Assembly (NCBI RefSeq): GCF_003555505.1
Contig: NZ_CP032152.1
Coordinates: 1-64,000 of the forward strand
Length of the DNA: 64,000 nt
Origin: Thermosynechococcus sichuanensis E542
GTDB taxonomy: Bacteria > Cyanobacteriota > Cyanobacteriia > Thermosynechococcales > Thermosynechococcaceae
Reading direction: 5' to 3'
The position numbers and the translations under genes are program-made. Below the pieces are notes generated by a model that searched no databases, was not told where the DNA came from, and was given only the letters and a program-made list of their open reading frames with translations. Shown here piece after piece: positions 2,060 through 6,132 of the stretch. Within the stretch, counting starts at the first letter, position 1. Each line of letters begins with the position of its first letter.

Positions 2060-2851
2060 ATGCGGAGTCACCCCAGCGTGGAGTCAGCGCATATTTTAGG
2101 GACACGGATTGATGTCACCACCTACCGCCAAGCCGGTGATCTCATTGCTGAATGGATCAGTCAAGGTAAGGGAGGCTATGTGGTGGCGGCCAATGTTCAT
2201 GTGGTAATGACAGGGGTGTGGCGATCGCCCTTCCGACGGGTGGTGAATGGTGCCCAACTGGTGACCTCTGACGGTATGCCCTTGGTGTGGGGCTTACGGC
2301 TCTTGGGCTTTCCTGAGGCGGAACGGGTCTATGGTCCTGATTTGATGCTGGCGTTGTGCGATCGCGCCCAAGAGGAAGGTTGGCGTATTTTCCTCTATGG
2401 CAGTGAATTCCTCGTCTTAGAGCGGCTGCAACGGAATCTGCGCGAACGCTTTCCCAATATCCAGTTAGTGGGTGCCTATGCACCGCCTTTTCGTCCTTTG
2501 ACCCCTGAGGAGGAAGCCAGCGATCGCCAACGCATCCTTGATAGTGGTGCTGATCTGGTTTTTGTCAGCCTTGGCTGTCCTAAACAGGAGGAGTGGATGG
2601 CTCGCCAAAGTCCTTTCTTGCCAATTGTCTTAGTGGGTGTCGGCGCCGCCTTTAACTTTCACAGTGGGGTTGTGGCGCAAGCGCCTCGCTGGATGATGGC
2701 GATCGGTCTGGAGTGGCTCTTTCGACTCCTGCAGGAACCCCGCCGTCTCTGGCAACGCTATCTGATTAACAATCCCGCATTTGTTGTGCTTTTTGCGGCT
2801 CAACTCCTGCGTCACTGGCTAGGCCGACGGCAGGCCAAGAGAGTCTCCTAG
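2060..2851 (+). CDS. WecG/TagA/CpsF family glycosyltransferase
   Basis: This 263-residue protein belongs to the GT26 family, which transfers N-acetylmannosamine-type sugars to lipid-linked acceptors in surface polysaccharide synthesis. Visible hallmarks are ILGTRIDV near the N-terminus, ANVHVV, TSDGMPLVWGLRLLG (with the conserved Asp), VYGPDLML, FLYGS, VGAYAPPF, LGCPKQEEWM and VGVGAAFNFHSG. The C-terminus has the family's WLFRLLQEPRRLWQRY membrane-association segment. The specific sugar and acceptor cannot be told from sequence. Its 3' end overlaps the convergent gene at 2819 by 33 bases. Confidence 0.88.
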   Translation: MRSHPSVESAHILGTRIDVTTYRQAGDLIAEWISQGKGGYVVAANVHVVMTGVWRSPFRRVVNGAQLVTSDGMPLVWGLRLLGFPEAERVYGPDLMLALCDRAQEEGWRIFLYGSEFLVLERLQRNLRERFPNIQLVGAYAPPFRPLTPEEEASDRQRILDSGADLVFVSLGCPKQEEWMARQSPFLPIVLVGVGAAFNFHSGVVAQAPRWMMAIGLEWLFRLLQEPRRLWQRYLINNPAFVVLFAAQLLRHWLGRRQAKRVS

Positions 2852-4066
2852 GGTTTGCAGGGGAGAGCGTCCCACCCGTTGCTGTGCCCACTGAAGGCTT
2901 TGCTGCAATTGAGTCACCAGGGGCAAGGATTTTGTTTGGGGAGCAGTCTCAAAGTAATAAATCAAACTCAATCCACTCAAGCGCAGCACATAGGCTGCCG
3001 TTGCTCCCTGTAAACAACTCCCTGCCAAATAGGTGAGGGAATTGCCCTTGAGCCACTGCCCTAGGGATTGCGTGCCCAGTTCCACAGCCCCCAACTGTAC
3101 CATTAGCCGCAATAGCTCCTTAGCAAGGGGTTCGGCATCCGCCAAGCGAAAGGAGCGGTGGTAGATTTGTCCTAAGTCCCACGTGAGGCGCACCAATAGC
3201 CCCCCGGCCATAACGAGATCCAGAAGCGGGAGAGGATTCACTGCCGTTGCCCCTGCTGCCAGCCATTGGTAGCGTTCAATGATCGGCGTGGCTCGTTCTT
3301 GGCGATAGTGGTTGAGGGCGGCTTGCGCCTGTTGATGGAGCTGTTGGGCACGGCGATAGGTGCCGGCTAGGACGAGATTTGCTCGCTGTTGGGTGAGACA
3401 GTGCAGCACTGCAGAGGTGAGGGCTTGGGGATTGTGGGGTGTAAAGGGAATTAGTTGGTCTTGCCCAATCTGGAGTTGTTGCAGTTGCTGTTGTAAATGC
3501 CCTGCCACGCGATCGCAAAGCGCGCCCTTCGGGCGATCGCTCTCCTGCGCCATTTCTGGATACCACACCACCAGAACGTGATAATGGCTTGCCTGCAACA
3601 CCCGCAGCATCTCAAACTCACTGGCGGTGAGGACACCCGTTACTGTCAAAAGCACTAAGTCTGCTTGGGGCACTGTTGCCAAGGTTTGCTGCTGAACCGT
3701 ACAGCGCTCAAGGGGTAGGGTAGCAACGGCATCGTGCACCTGATTGAGAGCATAGGCTGACTGGCCGAGGACACAGACCTCAACCGTTGGGCTATCTAAC
3801 CGCCGTTGGAGTTGGCTGTGGGTTGATTGTAGAGAGGCTTGACGCTCTGTGGGAAGTTCCTGCAAAAGAGTATGAGTCTCTGCCAGTTGCTTTTCAAGCA
3901 ATTGAGGATGCAGAGTAGGTGGCGGGGCTTTGACTTCCGTAGGAGCGGGCGATCGCCGCCAGTACCAATAGCCCAATCCCAGAGCGAGAATCAGGAGCCA
4001 TGCCCACGGATGGTCATTCACCCAGCCACTCAACAACAAAAGAATGATGGCGGCAGCAACAGCCAT
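2819..4066 (-). CDS. YcjF/DUF697-like membrane protein with degenerate GTPase-like domain
   Basis: The protein (about 415 residues) has one or two N-terminal membrane segments (AAAIILLLLSGW and WAWLLILALGLGYWYW). These are followed by a cytoplasmic region resembling the GTPase plus DUF697 proteins of cyanobacteria. In the place expected for the P-loop it reads VCVLGQSAYALNQV, which lacks the GxxxxGK(S/T) signature, so GTP binding is doubtful. The later segments ADLVLLTVTG and HVLVVWYPEM occupy positions where a GTPase would have its switch and NKxD regions. The C-terminal 150 residues contain hydrophobic helices (LLDLVMAGGLLVRLTWDLGQIY). ATG 4066 is chosen; an in-frame TTG at 4084 is possible. 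The role is unknown. Confidence 0.6.
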   Translation of the reverse strand: MAVAAAIILLLLSGWVNDHPWAWLLILALGLGYWYWRRSPAPTEVKAPPPTLHPQLLEKQLAETHTLLQELPTERQASLQSTHSQLQRRLDSPTVEVCVLGQSAYALNQVHDAVATLPLERCTVQQQTLATVPQADLVLLTVTGVLTASEFEMLRVLQASHYHVLVVWYPEMAQESDRPKGALCDRVAGHLQQQLQQLQIGQDQLIPFTPHNPQALTSAVLHCLTQQRANLVLAGTYRRAQQLHQQAQAALNHYRQERATPIIERYQWLAAGATAVNPLPLLDLVMAGGLLVRLTWDLGQIYHRSFRLADAEPLAKELLRLMVQLGAVELGTQSLGQWLKGNSLTYLAGSCLQGATAAYVLRLSGLSLIYYFETAPQTKSLPLVTQLQQSLQWAQQRVGRSPLQTLGDSLGLPSA

Positions 4067-4084
4067 GTCCTTTACCCCAAGCAA

Positions 4085-4432
4085 GATCCTCTGTTTGTTA
4101 GCTTACCTTGACTAGTGAGCAGCACTCAAATGCCCAAAGCTCGAGAAAGTACAGGCTGAGTTTTCTGCCCGCTTTTCAAAAATGCAAGCACCTCTGGACT
4201 GAAATATTCTCTGGATTGGTCAATATTCAAAAATAGCCTCTTGACTTGATTTGAGAGTTTTTGTTAGATTTAGAGGTGCTTGAAAATCTCTGAACCTATT
4301 CCCCAGAGCGGGATTGACAACTGAAGACGAGGCTAAACTAAAAATTTTACAGCCGCCAAAAAATCAAGTGCCTGAGGTGCTTGAAAACGGGGTGTGCTAA
4401 GCTAGTCCTAGAGGCACTTCCAGAGTGCCACT
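4085..4432 (+). promoter_or_regulatory. CRISPR leader region with two candidate promoters and a repeated motif
   Basis: About 350 bases with no gene separate the membrane-protein gene from the first CRISPR repeat. The stretch is AT-rich compared with its surroundings. It contains two sigma-70-like elements pointing toward the array: TTGACT (4241-4246) with 17-base spacing to TTAGAT (4264-4269), and a consensus TTGACA (4314-4319) with weaker -10 sequences. The 14-base motif GAGGTGCTTGAAAA occurs twice in direct orientation (4273-4286 and 4374-4387), and its first nine bases occur once inverted (4186-4194). The motif resembles the GTGCTT start of the repeat. The leader assignment is an inference from position, composition and promoters. 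Confidence 0.6.
4241..4269 (+). promoter_or_regulatory. Candidate promoter of the CRISPR array
   Basis: TTGACT at 4241-4246 and TTAGAT at 4264-4269 are separated by 17 bases. They match the -35 and -10 consensus in five and four of six positions and direct transcription to the right, into the array. The predicted start (about 4276) falls inside the first copy of the GAGGTGCTTGAAAA leader motif. Confidence 0.45.
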
Positions 4433-5181
4433 GTGCTTCTACCTCTGATGCCGCAAGGCGTTGAGCACGAACATCACCAATCCACGCCGCCCCCTGACCT
4501 ACAGGTGCTTCTACCTCTGATGCCGCAAGGCGTTGAGCACAATACTTGCAATGCTTGCTGGAAGTACTTGACATGTGCTTCTACCTCTGATGCCGCAAGG
4601 CGTTGAGCACTCAAACAGCAACGACTGACTGCGTTGAATTTTCCAGGTGCTTCTACCTCTGATGCCGCAAGGCGTTGAGCACAATTGGAACAGTCGTCAT
4701 TCATGTCTTGCCTCACAAGTGCTTCTACCTCTGATGCCGCAAGGCGTTGAGCACATACTAGAATCGCCGCATTACTTAAAATACAAGCTTATGTGCTTCT
4801 ACCTCTGATGCCGCAAGGCGTTGAGCACCGATCCACTTGACCCGCGAAAACTACCCCTGGGGTGTGCTTCTACCTCTGATGCCGCAAGGCGTTGAGCACA
4901 CACTACGCCTCAAATTTATACATTTGATTGGTCTGTGCTTCTACCTCTGATGCCGCAAGGCGTTGAGCACCTCAAAACGGGTTTAACCTACCGTTTTGAT
5001 GAAGAGTGCTTCTACCTCTGATGCCGCAAGGCGTTGAGCACTTTTTAATATCTGAGCCTTTTATAGGTAGTGTTGTGCTTCTACCTCTGATGCCGCAAGG
5101 CGTTGAGCACACGGAGGCAGAGTGGCAGGCGGCTGTTCAAAAAGAGTGCTTCTACCTCTGATGCCGCAAGGCGTTGAGCAC
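4433..5181 (+). CRISPR. CRISPR array, 11 identical 36-bp repeats and 10 spacers
   Basis: The repeat starts GTGCTTCTACC, contains the short hairpin GCC-GCAA-GGC, and ends GTTGAGCAC. Its ends are inverted (GTGCT/AGCAC). Repeats begin at 4433, 4505, 4575, 4647, 4719, 4793, 4864, 4935, 5006, 5075 and 5146, and all eleven read identically. Spacers are 36, 34, 36, 36, 38, 35, 35, 35, 33 and 35 bases long and all differ. No cas gene is present within the window, so the subtype cannot be assigned here. The plus strand is favoured as the transcribed strand because promoters lie on the left. In addition, the internal hairpin gains G-U pairs and a GNRA-type GCAA loop only in the plus-strand RNA. Identical repeats mean orientation cannot be read from a decayed terminal copy. 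Confidence 0.97.
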
Positions 5182-5358: not shown

Positions 5359-6132
5359 ATGGATGTTATCCCCGCCATTGATTTACTTGACGGCAAATGT
5401 GTGCGCCTAGTGCAAGGGGACTATGGTAAGGTTAATGTTTTTCATGATGATCCCCTAAAAGTCGCCCTCTACTGGCAGCGGTTGGGTGCTCCCCGCCTGC
5501 ATGTCGTTGACTTGGATGCTGCCAAAACAGGAGAACCGCGGAACTACGATCTTATTGCCAAGATTGTTGCCTCCCTTGAAATTCCTGTGCAGGTGGGGGG
5601 TGGCTTGCGATCGCGCCAAGCCGTTGCGGAACTCTTTCTCCAAGGCGTCAATCGTGCTATTTTGGGCACCGTGGCTCTTGAGGATCCAGAGCTAGTGGCC
5701 AGTTTGGCCGCAGACTATCCGGGGCGGATTTGGGTCGGGCTGGATGCTCGCGATGGCTATGTGGCAACGCGGGGTTGGCTAGAAACCTCAACCATTTTGG
5801 CAACAGATCTGGCCCAAAAAATGGCCGCAATGGGGGTGGCGGGGTTTGTCTATACCGATATTCAGCGGGATGGCACCCTCCAAGGGCCGAATATTCCAGC
5901 CCTGCGGCAGTTATTGGCGGCAACCGATCGCCCAGTCATTGCCTCAGGTGGCGTGAGTTCTCTTACAGATATTCTCAGTCTCTTTGCCTTGAGTCCCCAA
6001 GGACTCTCGGGGGCGATCGTTGGCAAGGCACTTTACACCAAAGCAGTGGATTTGCGGGAAGCCGTTCGGGCGGTTGGTCAGGGGCGCTGGCAAGATATTC
6101 CGCCAGATTTGGGCAGCACGACTTGGGTATAA
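5359..6132 (+). CDS. hisA: Phosphoribosylformimino-5-aminoimidazole carboxamide ribotide isomerase HisA
   Basis: This 257-residue (beta/alpha)8-barrel enzyme catalyses the fourth step of histidine synthesis, the isomerisation of ProFAR to PRFAR. It opens with MDVIPAIDLLDGKCVRLVQGD, carrying the catalytic Asp. The half-barrel repeats show HVVDLDAAK, VQVGGGLRS and GLDARDG (second catalytic Asp region), and VYTDIQRDGTLQG and ASGGVSS form the phosphate-binding sites. Length is normal for the family. It stands alone rather than in a his operon; hisIE is also isolated in this window (54095-54739). An ABC exporter follows 38 bases downstream. Confidence 0.96.
   Translation: MDVIPAIDLLDGKCVRLVQGDYGKVNVFHDDPLKVALYWQRLGAPRLHVVDLDAAKTGEPRNYDLIAKIVASLEIPVQVGGGLRSRQAVAELFLQGVNRAILGTVALEDPELVASLAADYPGRIWVGLDARDGYVATRGWLETSTILATDLAQKMAAMGVAGFVYTDIQRDGTLQGPNIPALRQLLAATDRPVIASGGVSSLTDILSLFALSPQGLSGAIVGKALYTKAVDLREAVRAVGQGRWQDIPPDLGSTTWV

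What the first reader, a model, noticed from the sequence alone, without database searches (positions are those of the whole stretch)
4433..5181. Orphan CRISPR array of 11 perfectly identical repeats
All eleven 36-base repeats, including both terminal copies, read identically, and the ten spacers differ. No cas gene occurs anywhere in the 64 kb. The repeat does not end in the GAAAC-like handle common in many cyanobacterial type I and III repeats; it ends GTTGAGCAC. The array may depend on a distant Cas locus. Perfect repeats and unique spacers suggest it is maintained rather than decaying.
Basis: partly seen in the sequence, partly recalled or inferred. Interest (0 to 1): 0.55.

Follow-up and report, generated by a model that had tools for sequence, protein, structure and literature searches.

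The report
Distant CRISPR array sharing one leader
The array is not an orphan: it is a second memory bank of a complete CRISPR system elsewhere in the same cyanobacterial genome, and the DNA at the head of both banks appears to be kept nearly identical by copying between them, which would keep both readable by one spacer-inserting enzyme.

Summary
"Orphan" is not. The single-contig 2.65-Mb genome (by size, Thermosynechococcus PKUAC-SCTE542) has a complete type I-B (MYXAN) cas locus around a sister array, whose repeat differs at 2 of 36 positions and whose leader matches the window leader (4182-4432) at 247 of 251. Cas1 occurs once. Three further arrays with type III-like repeats carry leaders of the same family; all five leaders hold two AGGTGCTTGAA boxes exactly 101 bp apart. 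A Cmr (III-B) effector locus was also found. The array is best read as a trans-array served by one Cas4-Cas1/Cas2 module; sharing of this kind between I-B and III is already described. The less expected result is comparative: in four of four Thermosynechococcus genomes with two I-B leaders, the two resemble each other (94-98%) more than any leader of another genome (at most 93%), and trees that group leaders by position are rejected. That is concerted evolution, probably by ectopic gene conversion. Acquisition and crRNA production were not testable here; no protospacer was found (exact viral scans for 5 of 10 spacers; BLAST of the whole array against phages and plasmids).

The parts
4182..4432 (+). 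Leader, 251 nt; 247 of 251 identical to the leader of the cas-side array; its left end is where homology to the other leader copies starts
4185..4199 (+). Conserved left-end block CAAGCACCTCTGGAC, an inverted copy of the box motif
4274..4284 (+). Box 1, AGGTGCTTGAA
   Evidence: exact pair of boxes 101 bp apart in 5 of 5 leaders of this genome and 15 of 27 leader copies examined
4375..4385 (+). Box 2, AGGTGCTTGAA, exactly 101 bp from box 1
4338..4351 (+). Conserved A+T-rich block CTAAAAATTTTACA
4395..4403 (+). Extended -10-like sequence TGCTAAGCT, a candidate array promoter (inference)
4413..4429 (+). Hairpin (arms 4413-4419 and 4423-4429) just before repeat 1, with compensatory changes among related leaders; not present in all of them
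4433..5181 (+). CRISPR array: 11 identical 36-nt repeats and 10 spacers; predicted Cas6 stem-loop GCC-GCAA-GGC and 8-nt handle TTGAGCAC (handle inferred)
2819..4084 (-). DUF697 protein gene, the left neighbour; its orthologue also borders the leader in G005, G006, G007, G009 and G010
5359..6132 (+). Right neighbour, hisA-like gene (name recalled from the protein sequence, not searched); in G003 and G004 it lies next to the left neighbour without an array

Best explanation
The window array is a second, distant array of the genome's type I-B (MYXAN) CRISPR-Cas system. Shown by sequence: nearly the same leader and repeat as the cas-side array, one Cas1 in the genome, an orthologous site in six genomes of the genus, and leader pairs that group by genome and not by position. 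Inferred: the single Cas4-Cas1 fusion with Cas2 recognises the leader (boxes and leader end) and adds spacers here as well as at the cas-side array and at the three type III-like arrays with related leaders; Cas6 cuts the transcript 8 nt before each spacer and the I-B effector uses the crRNAs. Inferred: the leader copies are kept alike within a genome by ectopic gene conversion, so that all arrays stay usable by one adaptation machine.
For: Sister array (15 repeats, 2 fixed differences) beside cas4-cas1, cas2, cas6, cas3, cas8a1, cas7 and cas5. Leader 247/251 identical, flanks unrelated. One PF01867 hit in the genome. Five leaders of one family, each with an array; the 11-mer AGGTGCTTGAA occurs 12 times in the genome, 10 of them as the pairs in these leaders. 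Leader pairs 98, 98, 98 and 94% within G000, G006, G003 and G008, at most 93% between genomes; at 103 variable columns 93-96% within and 66-86% in the seven between-genome I-B pairs compared. AU test without G008: p 1.2e-5 for the cas-side group, 3.7e-6 for the syntenic distant group. Both arrays of G003 share T13 and both of G006 share A12, each not in the other genome's arrays. Five of 5 genomes with an intact Cas1 carry an array with at least 6 perfect I-B repeats; 1 of 6 without.
Against: In this genome the two arrays' repeats differ at 2 positions, so homogenisation did not cover the repeats. G007 has no Cas1 hit but keeps 7 repeats (6 perfect), so perfect repeats alone do not prove activity. 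No spacer is shared between any two of the 13 arrays compared (229 spacers), so no spacer documents exchange. Support for single genome pairs in the tree is moderate (about 74-92% bootstrap without G008), and I had seen the identity table before naming the groups. No protospacer, PAM or RNA evidence was obtained.
Confidence: 0.86

Rival explanations
1. Archive array: still transcribed and used by the I-B effector, but no longer gaining spacers.
For: Smaller than the cas-side array (11 against 15 repeats); repeat differs at 2 positions. G007 shows that an array can keep 6 perfect repeats without a Cas1 hit.
Against: The leader is full length with intact boxes. All 11 repeats carry both derived bases, which needs growth from one altered repeat after the change. 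In genomes without intact Cas1 the corresponding site is mostly a relic.
Confidence: 0.25
2. The two leaders are alike because of recent independent duplications of the leader in each lineage, not gene conversion between old copies.
For: G003's second I-B array lies at another site than the window array, so arrays can relocate.
Against: The distant leader borders the same gene at nearly the same point in six genomes (G000, G005, G006, G007, G009, G010), and G004 keeps 17 nt of leader at a deleted site; this points to one old position. Repeated insertion at one nucleotide is less simple. Copying over an existing leader would count as conversion.
Confidence: 0.15
3. Leaders are alike within a genome only because selection on Cas1 binding keeps them alike.
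For: Some blocks are conserved across all active leaders.
Against: At 103 variable columns, within-genome pairs still agree at 93-96% against 66-86% between genomes. Conserved blocks cannot give this.
Confidence: 0.05
4. True orphan array or CRISPR-like repeat without any cas partner.
For: The three cas families searched have no hit within the 64-kb window.
Against: Complete I-B locus with matching leader and repeat in the same genome.
Confidence: 0.02

Closest known systems
Type I-B (MYXAN) CRISPR-Cas, e.g. the locus annotated on plasmid pSYLB of Synechocystis PCC 6714
   Same: Fused Cas4/Cas1, Cas2, Cmx6-type Cas6, Cas3, Cas5; last 23 nt of the cas-side repeat identical in 11 of 12 repeats there
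   Different: The window array is far from its cas genes; its repeat has C22 and T5; the first half of the repeat differs from PCC 6714
Co-occurring I-B and III systems with distinct repeats and shared acquisition genes (Vink et al. 2021, PMC8482600, passages seen)
   Same: One Cas1 in the genome, I-B and III-B effectors, different repeats
   Different: Here a leader family common to both kinds of array is visible; PAM sharing could not be tested
Distant arrays with the same repeat as the cas-side array (PMC12814883, passages seen)
   Same: Distant array with nearly the same repeat and similar length
   Different: That paper treats equal leaders as a guess behind equal repeats; here leaders are compared directly and pair by genome
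Multiple type III arrays of Thermus thermophilus HB27c with two leader clades (PMC7515739, passages seen)
   Same: Several arrays, leader families tied to acquisition
   Different: No between-species test of concerted evolution in the passages seen

Membership tests
Array of the genome's type I-B (MYXAN) system | Repeat matches the cas-side array | tested here: met
   34 of 36 positions; same 3' end and a GNRA loop in both (GCAA, GTAA)
Array of the genome's type I-B (MYXAN) system | Leader matches the cas-side array | tested here: met
   247 of 251
Array of the genome's type I-B (MYXAN) system | Complete adaptation and effector genes in the genome | tested here: met
   cas4-cas1, cas2, cas6, cas3, cas8a1, cas7, cas5; over the NCBIfam cut-off in at least one model each (the Cas8 C-terminal model and MYXAN Cmx8 fall below)
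Array of the genome's type I-B (MYXAN) system | crRNAs from this array are made and loaded | not testable with these tools
   no RNA data
Array of the genome's type I-B (MYXAN) system | New spacers enter this array | not testable with these tools
   no strain series or culture data
Orphan CRISPR array | No matching cas genes in the genome | tested here: not met
I-B and III systems sharing one acquisition module | Type III locus without its own cas1; only one Cas1 in the genome | tested here: met
   no cas1 among the ORFs of L075 that were read
I-B and III systems sharing one acquisition module | Same PAM beside protospacers of both kinds of array | tested here: inconclusive
   no protospacer found for this array; type III-like spacers not searched
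Concerted evolution of leaders | Copies within a genome closer than orthologues between genomes | tested here: met
   4 of 4 genomes with two I-B leaders; AU tests. Type III-like copies: clear for G000 B1/B2 and G003 III1/III2, slight for G006 III1/III2, not met for G006 III3

The most novel reading that the evidence does not exclude
A CRISPR leader behaves as a portable address for one adaptation machine: copies at unlinked sites, heading arrays with quite different repeats (I-B and III-like), are repeatedly overwritten from one another by gene conversion, so that a single Cas4-Cas1/Cas2 can serve all of them while repeats are free to diverge for different effectors. The two boxes 101 bp apart and the inverted copy at the leader's end would be the recognition frame.
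Probability: 0.6. Interest if true: 0.6.

Novelty: new member of a known kind. Interest (0 to 1): 0.4.

Why it matters
It removes a false orphan and names its likely partner. It also gives a natural test of what a Cas1-Cas2 complex needs: five leaders in one genome with common blocks but different repeats. And it bears on a published remark that the type III-B system of strain CL-1 and of SCTE542 lacks repeats and is probably not functional (PMC7005997, passage seen): arrays with type III-like repeats and leaders of this family exist elsewhere in both genomes (G000 and G003 by size match).

Tried and rejected
Considered and dropped: type V-B from the AGCAC end of the reverse strand (a recalled resemblance), because the leader orients the array on + and the cas locus is I-B; tracrRNA-like reading of the AGGTGCTTGAA copies, because they are leader boxes in all five leaders.

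Led nowhere: exact scans of viral contigs with the first 22-23 nt of 5 of 10 spacers (W1, W6, W10, W3, W4), 0 matches each. BLAST of the whole array against phages gave only a 33-nt, 88% match (E 0.2, phage S-CBP4) over spacer W9 and 5 bases of repeat; not taken as a protospacer. Against plasmids: only the PCC 6714 array. A repeat scan of genome contigs found 0. PF10040 found no Cas6 in G000, so no second Cas6 for the type III-like repeats was found with that model (it also misses the I-B Cas6, so this says little).

Mended: counts used a best-match regex that can skip imperfect copies; one search repeats them by plain scanning, with the same conclusions and fuller counts. In the order-wide search 6 of 18 genomes outside the genus had matches, but the list was cut, so I cannot say whether leader or repeat matched.

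Full report
Observation. The array is as described: 11 identical 36-nt repeats and 10 distinct spacers at 4433-5181. On its left lies a 251-nt leader (4182-4432), so the array reads on the + strand.

Not an orphan. The window is the start of a single-contig genome of 2,650,294 bases, the size listed for T. elongatus PKUAC-SCTE542 in PMC9403480 (passages seen). A search with up to 3 mismatches finds one other array of this repeat, 15 copies at C1:2004988-2006006, each with the same two differences (C5, T22). If the contig is circular this is about 650 kb away. It lies between a fused cas4-cas1 with cas2 and a cas6-cas3-cas8a1-cas7-cas5 run, which NCBIfam and PADLOC models call type I-MYXAN / I-B. 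The two leaders differ at 4 of 251 positions and their flanks are unrelated. Cas1 (PF01867) has one hit in the genome. The last 23 nt of the cas-side repeat recur in 11 of 12 repeats beside an annotated MYXAN locus in Synechocystis PCC 6714.

One leader family, five arrays. The leader matches three more places at 69-70% identity, and each is the leader of an array with another repeat: GTGCTGAGGCTTGTCCTCAGCCGATTAAATGGAAAC (24 and 19 copies) and GTGCTGGGA(A/G)CCTTTCCCAGCCGAATAAATGGAAAC (16 copies). I did not search for arrays with unrelated leaders. The 11-mer AGGTGCTTGAA occurs 12 times in the genome; 10 are pairs exactly 101 bp apart, one pair in each leader. Over the 27 leader copies and relics of the genus that I lined up, 15 have both boxes exact at 101 bp, 19 have the 101-bp spacing if up to 3 mismatches per box are allowed, and 3 have no such pair. 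The genome also has a Cmr locus: Cmr2 and Cmr4 over the NCBIfam cut-off, Cmr3 over Pfam's; a 624-aa RAMP protein with Cmr6-like and Cmr1-like stretches below the NCBIfam cut-offs, and a 128-aa protein in the usual place of Cmr5 without a significant hit. That these effectors use the type III-like arrays is inference.

Concerted evolution. The genus search covered 11 genomes; the leader matched in 10. The distant leader borders the same DUF697 gene in six (G000, G005, G006, G007, G009, G010); in G005 and G009 it is a relic without repeats, in G010 one degenerate repeat remains. In G004 17 nt of leader remain at the site, and in G003 the site has no leader while a second I-B array lies elsewhere. 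Leader pairs within genomes are 98% (G000, G003, G006) and 94% (G008); between genomes the highest is 93%. At variable columns the contrast is 93-96% against 66-86%. With trimmed leaders a tree in which the cas-side leaders form one group is rejected (p 1.6e-6 for four, 1.2e-5 without G008), and so is one in which the syntenic distant leaders do (4.8e-7; 3.7e-6 without G008). A five-row test including G008 gave a p too small to take at face value. Support for single pairs is moderate, and I had seen the identities before the tests, though the groups are set by position. Repeats follow in part: both arrays of G003 have T13 and both of G006 have A12, while in this genome the window array alone has T5 and C22. 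In the type III-like leaders the pattern is mixed: G000 B1/B2 97%, G003 III1/III2 96%, G006 III1/III2 91% (89-90% to G003), G006 III3 only 72-73% to its genome-mates and 90% to G004.

Link to Cas1. Five genomes have an intact Cas1 (G000, G002, G003, G006, G008); all five have I-B arrays with at least 6 perfect repeats. Of six without (G001, G004, G007, G010 no hit; G005, G009 fragments, draft assemblies), one (G007: 6 perfect, 1 altered) does; G001 and G010 have one isolated repeat each. These genomes are related, so the count is only suggestive. G002 also has two isolated repeats 1.2 kb apart, one of them before the gene that follows the distant array in G007 and G010.

Leader end. A hairpin just before repeat 1 shows compensatory changes: in 8 leaders (7 distinct) of 27, chosen because they align without gaps, 98% of cells pair, 3 of 7 pairs change on both sides, and 0 of 500 shuffles reach the covariation score. 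Of 18 leader ends folded it is the fold or part of it in 12; G003's two fold otherwise, and G002, G007 and G008 (two) lack it. With repeat 1 included, the cas-side leader and both G006 leaders prefer to pair TAGAGGCA(C) with the repeat's start. Its role is open.

Literature. Sharing of acquisition genes between I-B and III systems with distinct repeats is described (PMC8482600; PMC12814883; passages seen). Exchange between arrays has been suggested (PMC3396285 for repeats; PMC4390879 for spacer-repeat stretches; passages seen). My searches for leader homogenisation, concerted evolution or gene conversion (in an open-licence library) listed no paper on CRISPR leaders in that sense from the titles and passages I saw; that is no proof of absence.

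Verdict. An ordinary kind of object, misread as orphan, with a comparatively unusual history of its leader.

Noticed in passing
G000:C1:1168250-1175699 (locus L075:8250-15699): Cmr (III-B) locus without cas1 among the ORFs read; CL-1 paper PMC7005997 calls this system non-functional for lack of repeats, cmr1 and cmr5, but type III-like arrays with related leaders exist elsewhere in the genome.
   Followed up: partly
L021 and L022 (type III-like arrays B1 and B2): B1 spacers 1 and 3 are the same but for one base; B2 has two tandem duplicated spacers (6/7 and 8/9). Similar tandem duplicates occur in G006 and G008 arrays.
   Followed up: partly
G008:C1:1585520-1586362: A second full Cas1 about 7 kb from RAMP genes in G008: there a type III locus seems to have its own adaptation gene, unlike in G000.
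   Followed up: no
window 4413-4429: Covarying hairpin directly before repeat 1, which can compete with pairing between leader and repeat 1.
   Followed up: partly
G003:C1:1929769 (L076): The second I-B array of G003 sits upstream of another gene, with about 75 bp that resemble the flank left of the window leader, as if array and flank had moved together.
   Followed up: partly
L023 (array C): Two repeat versions (A or G at position 10; 12 and 4 copies) within one array.
   Followed up: no
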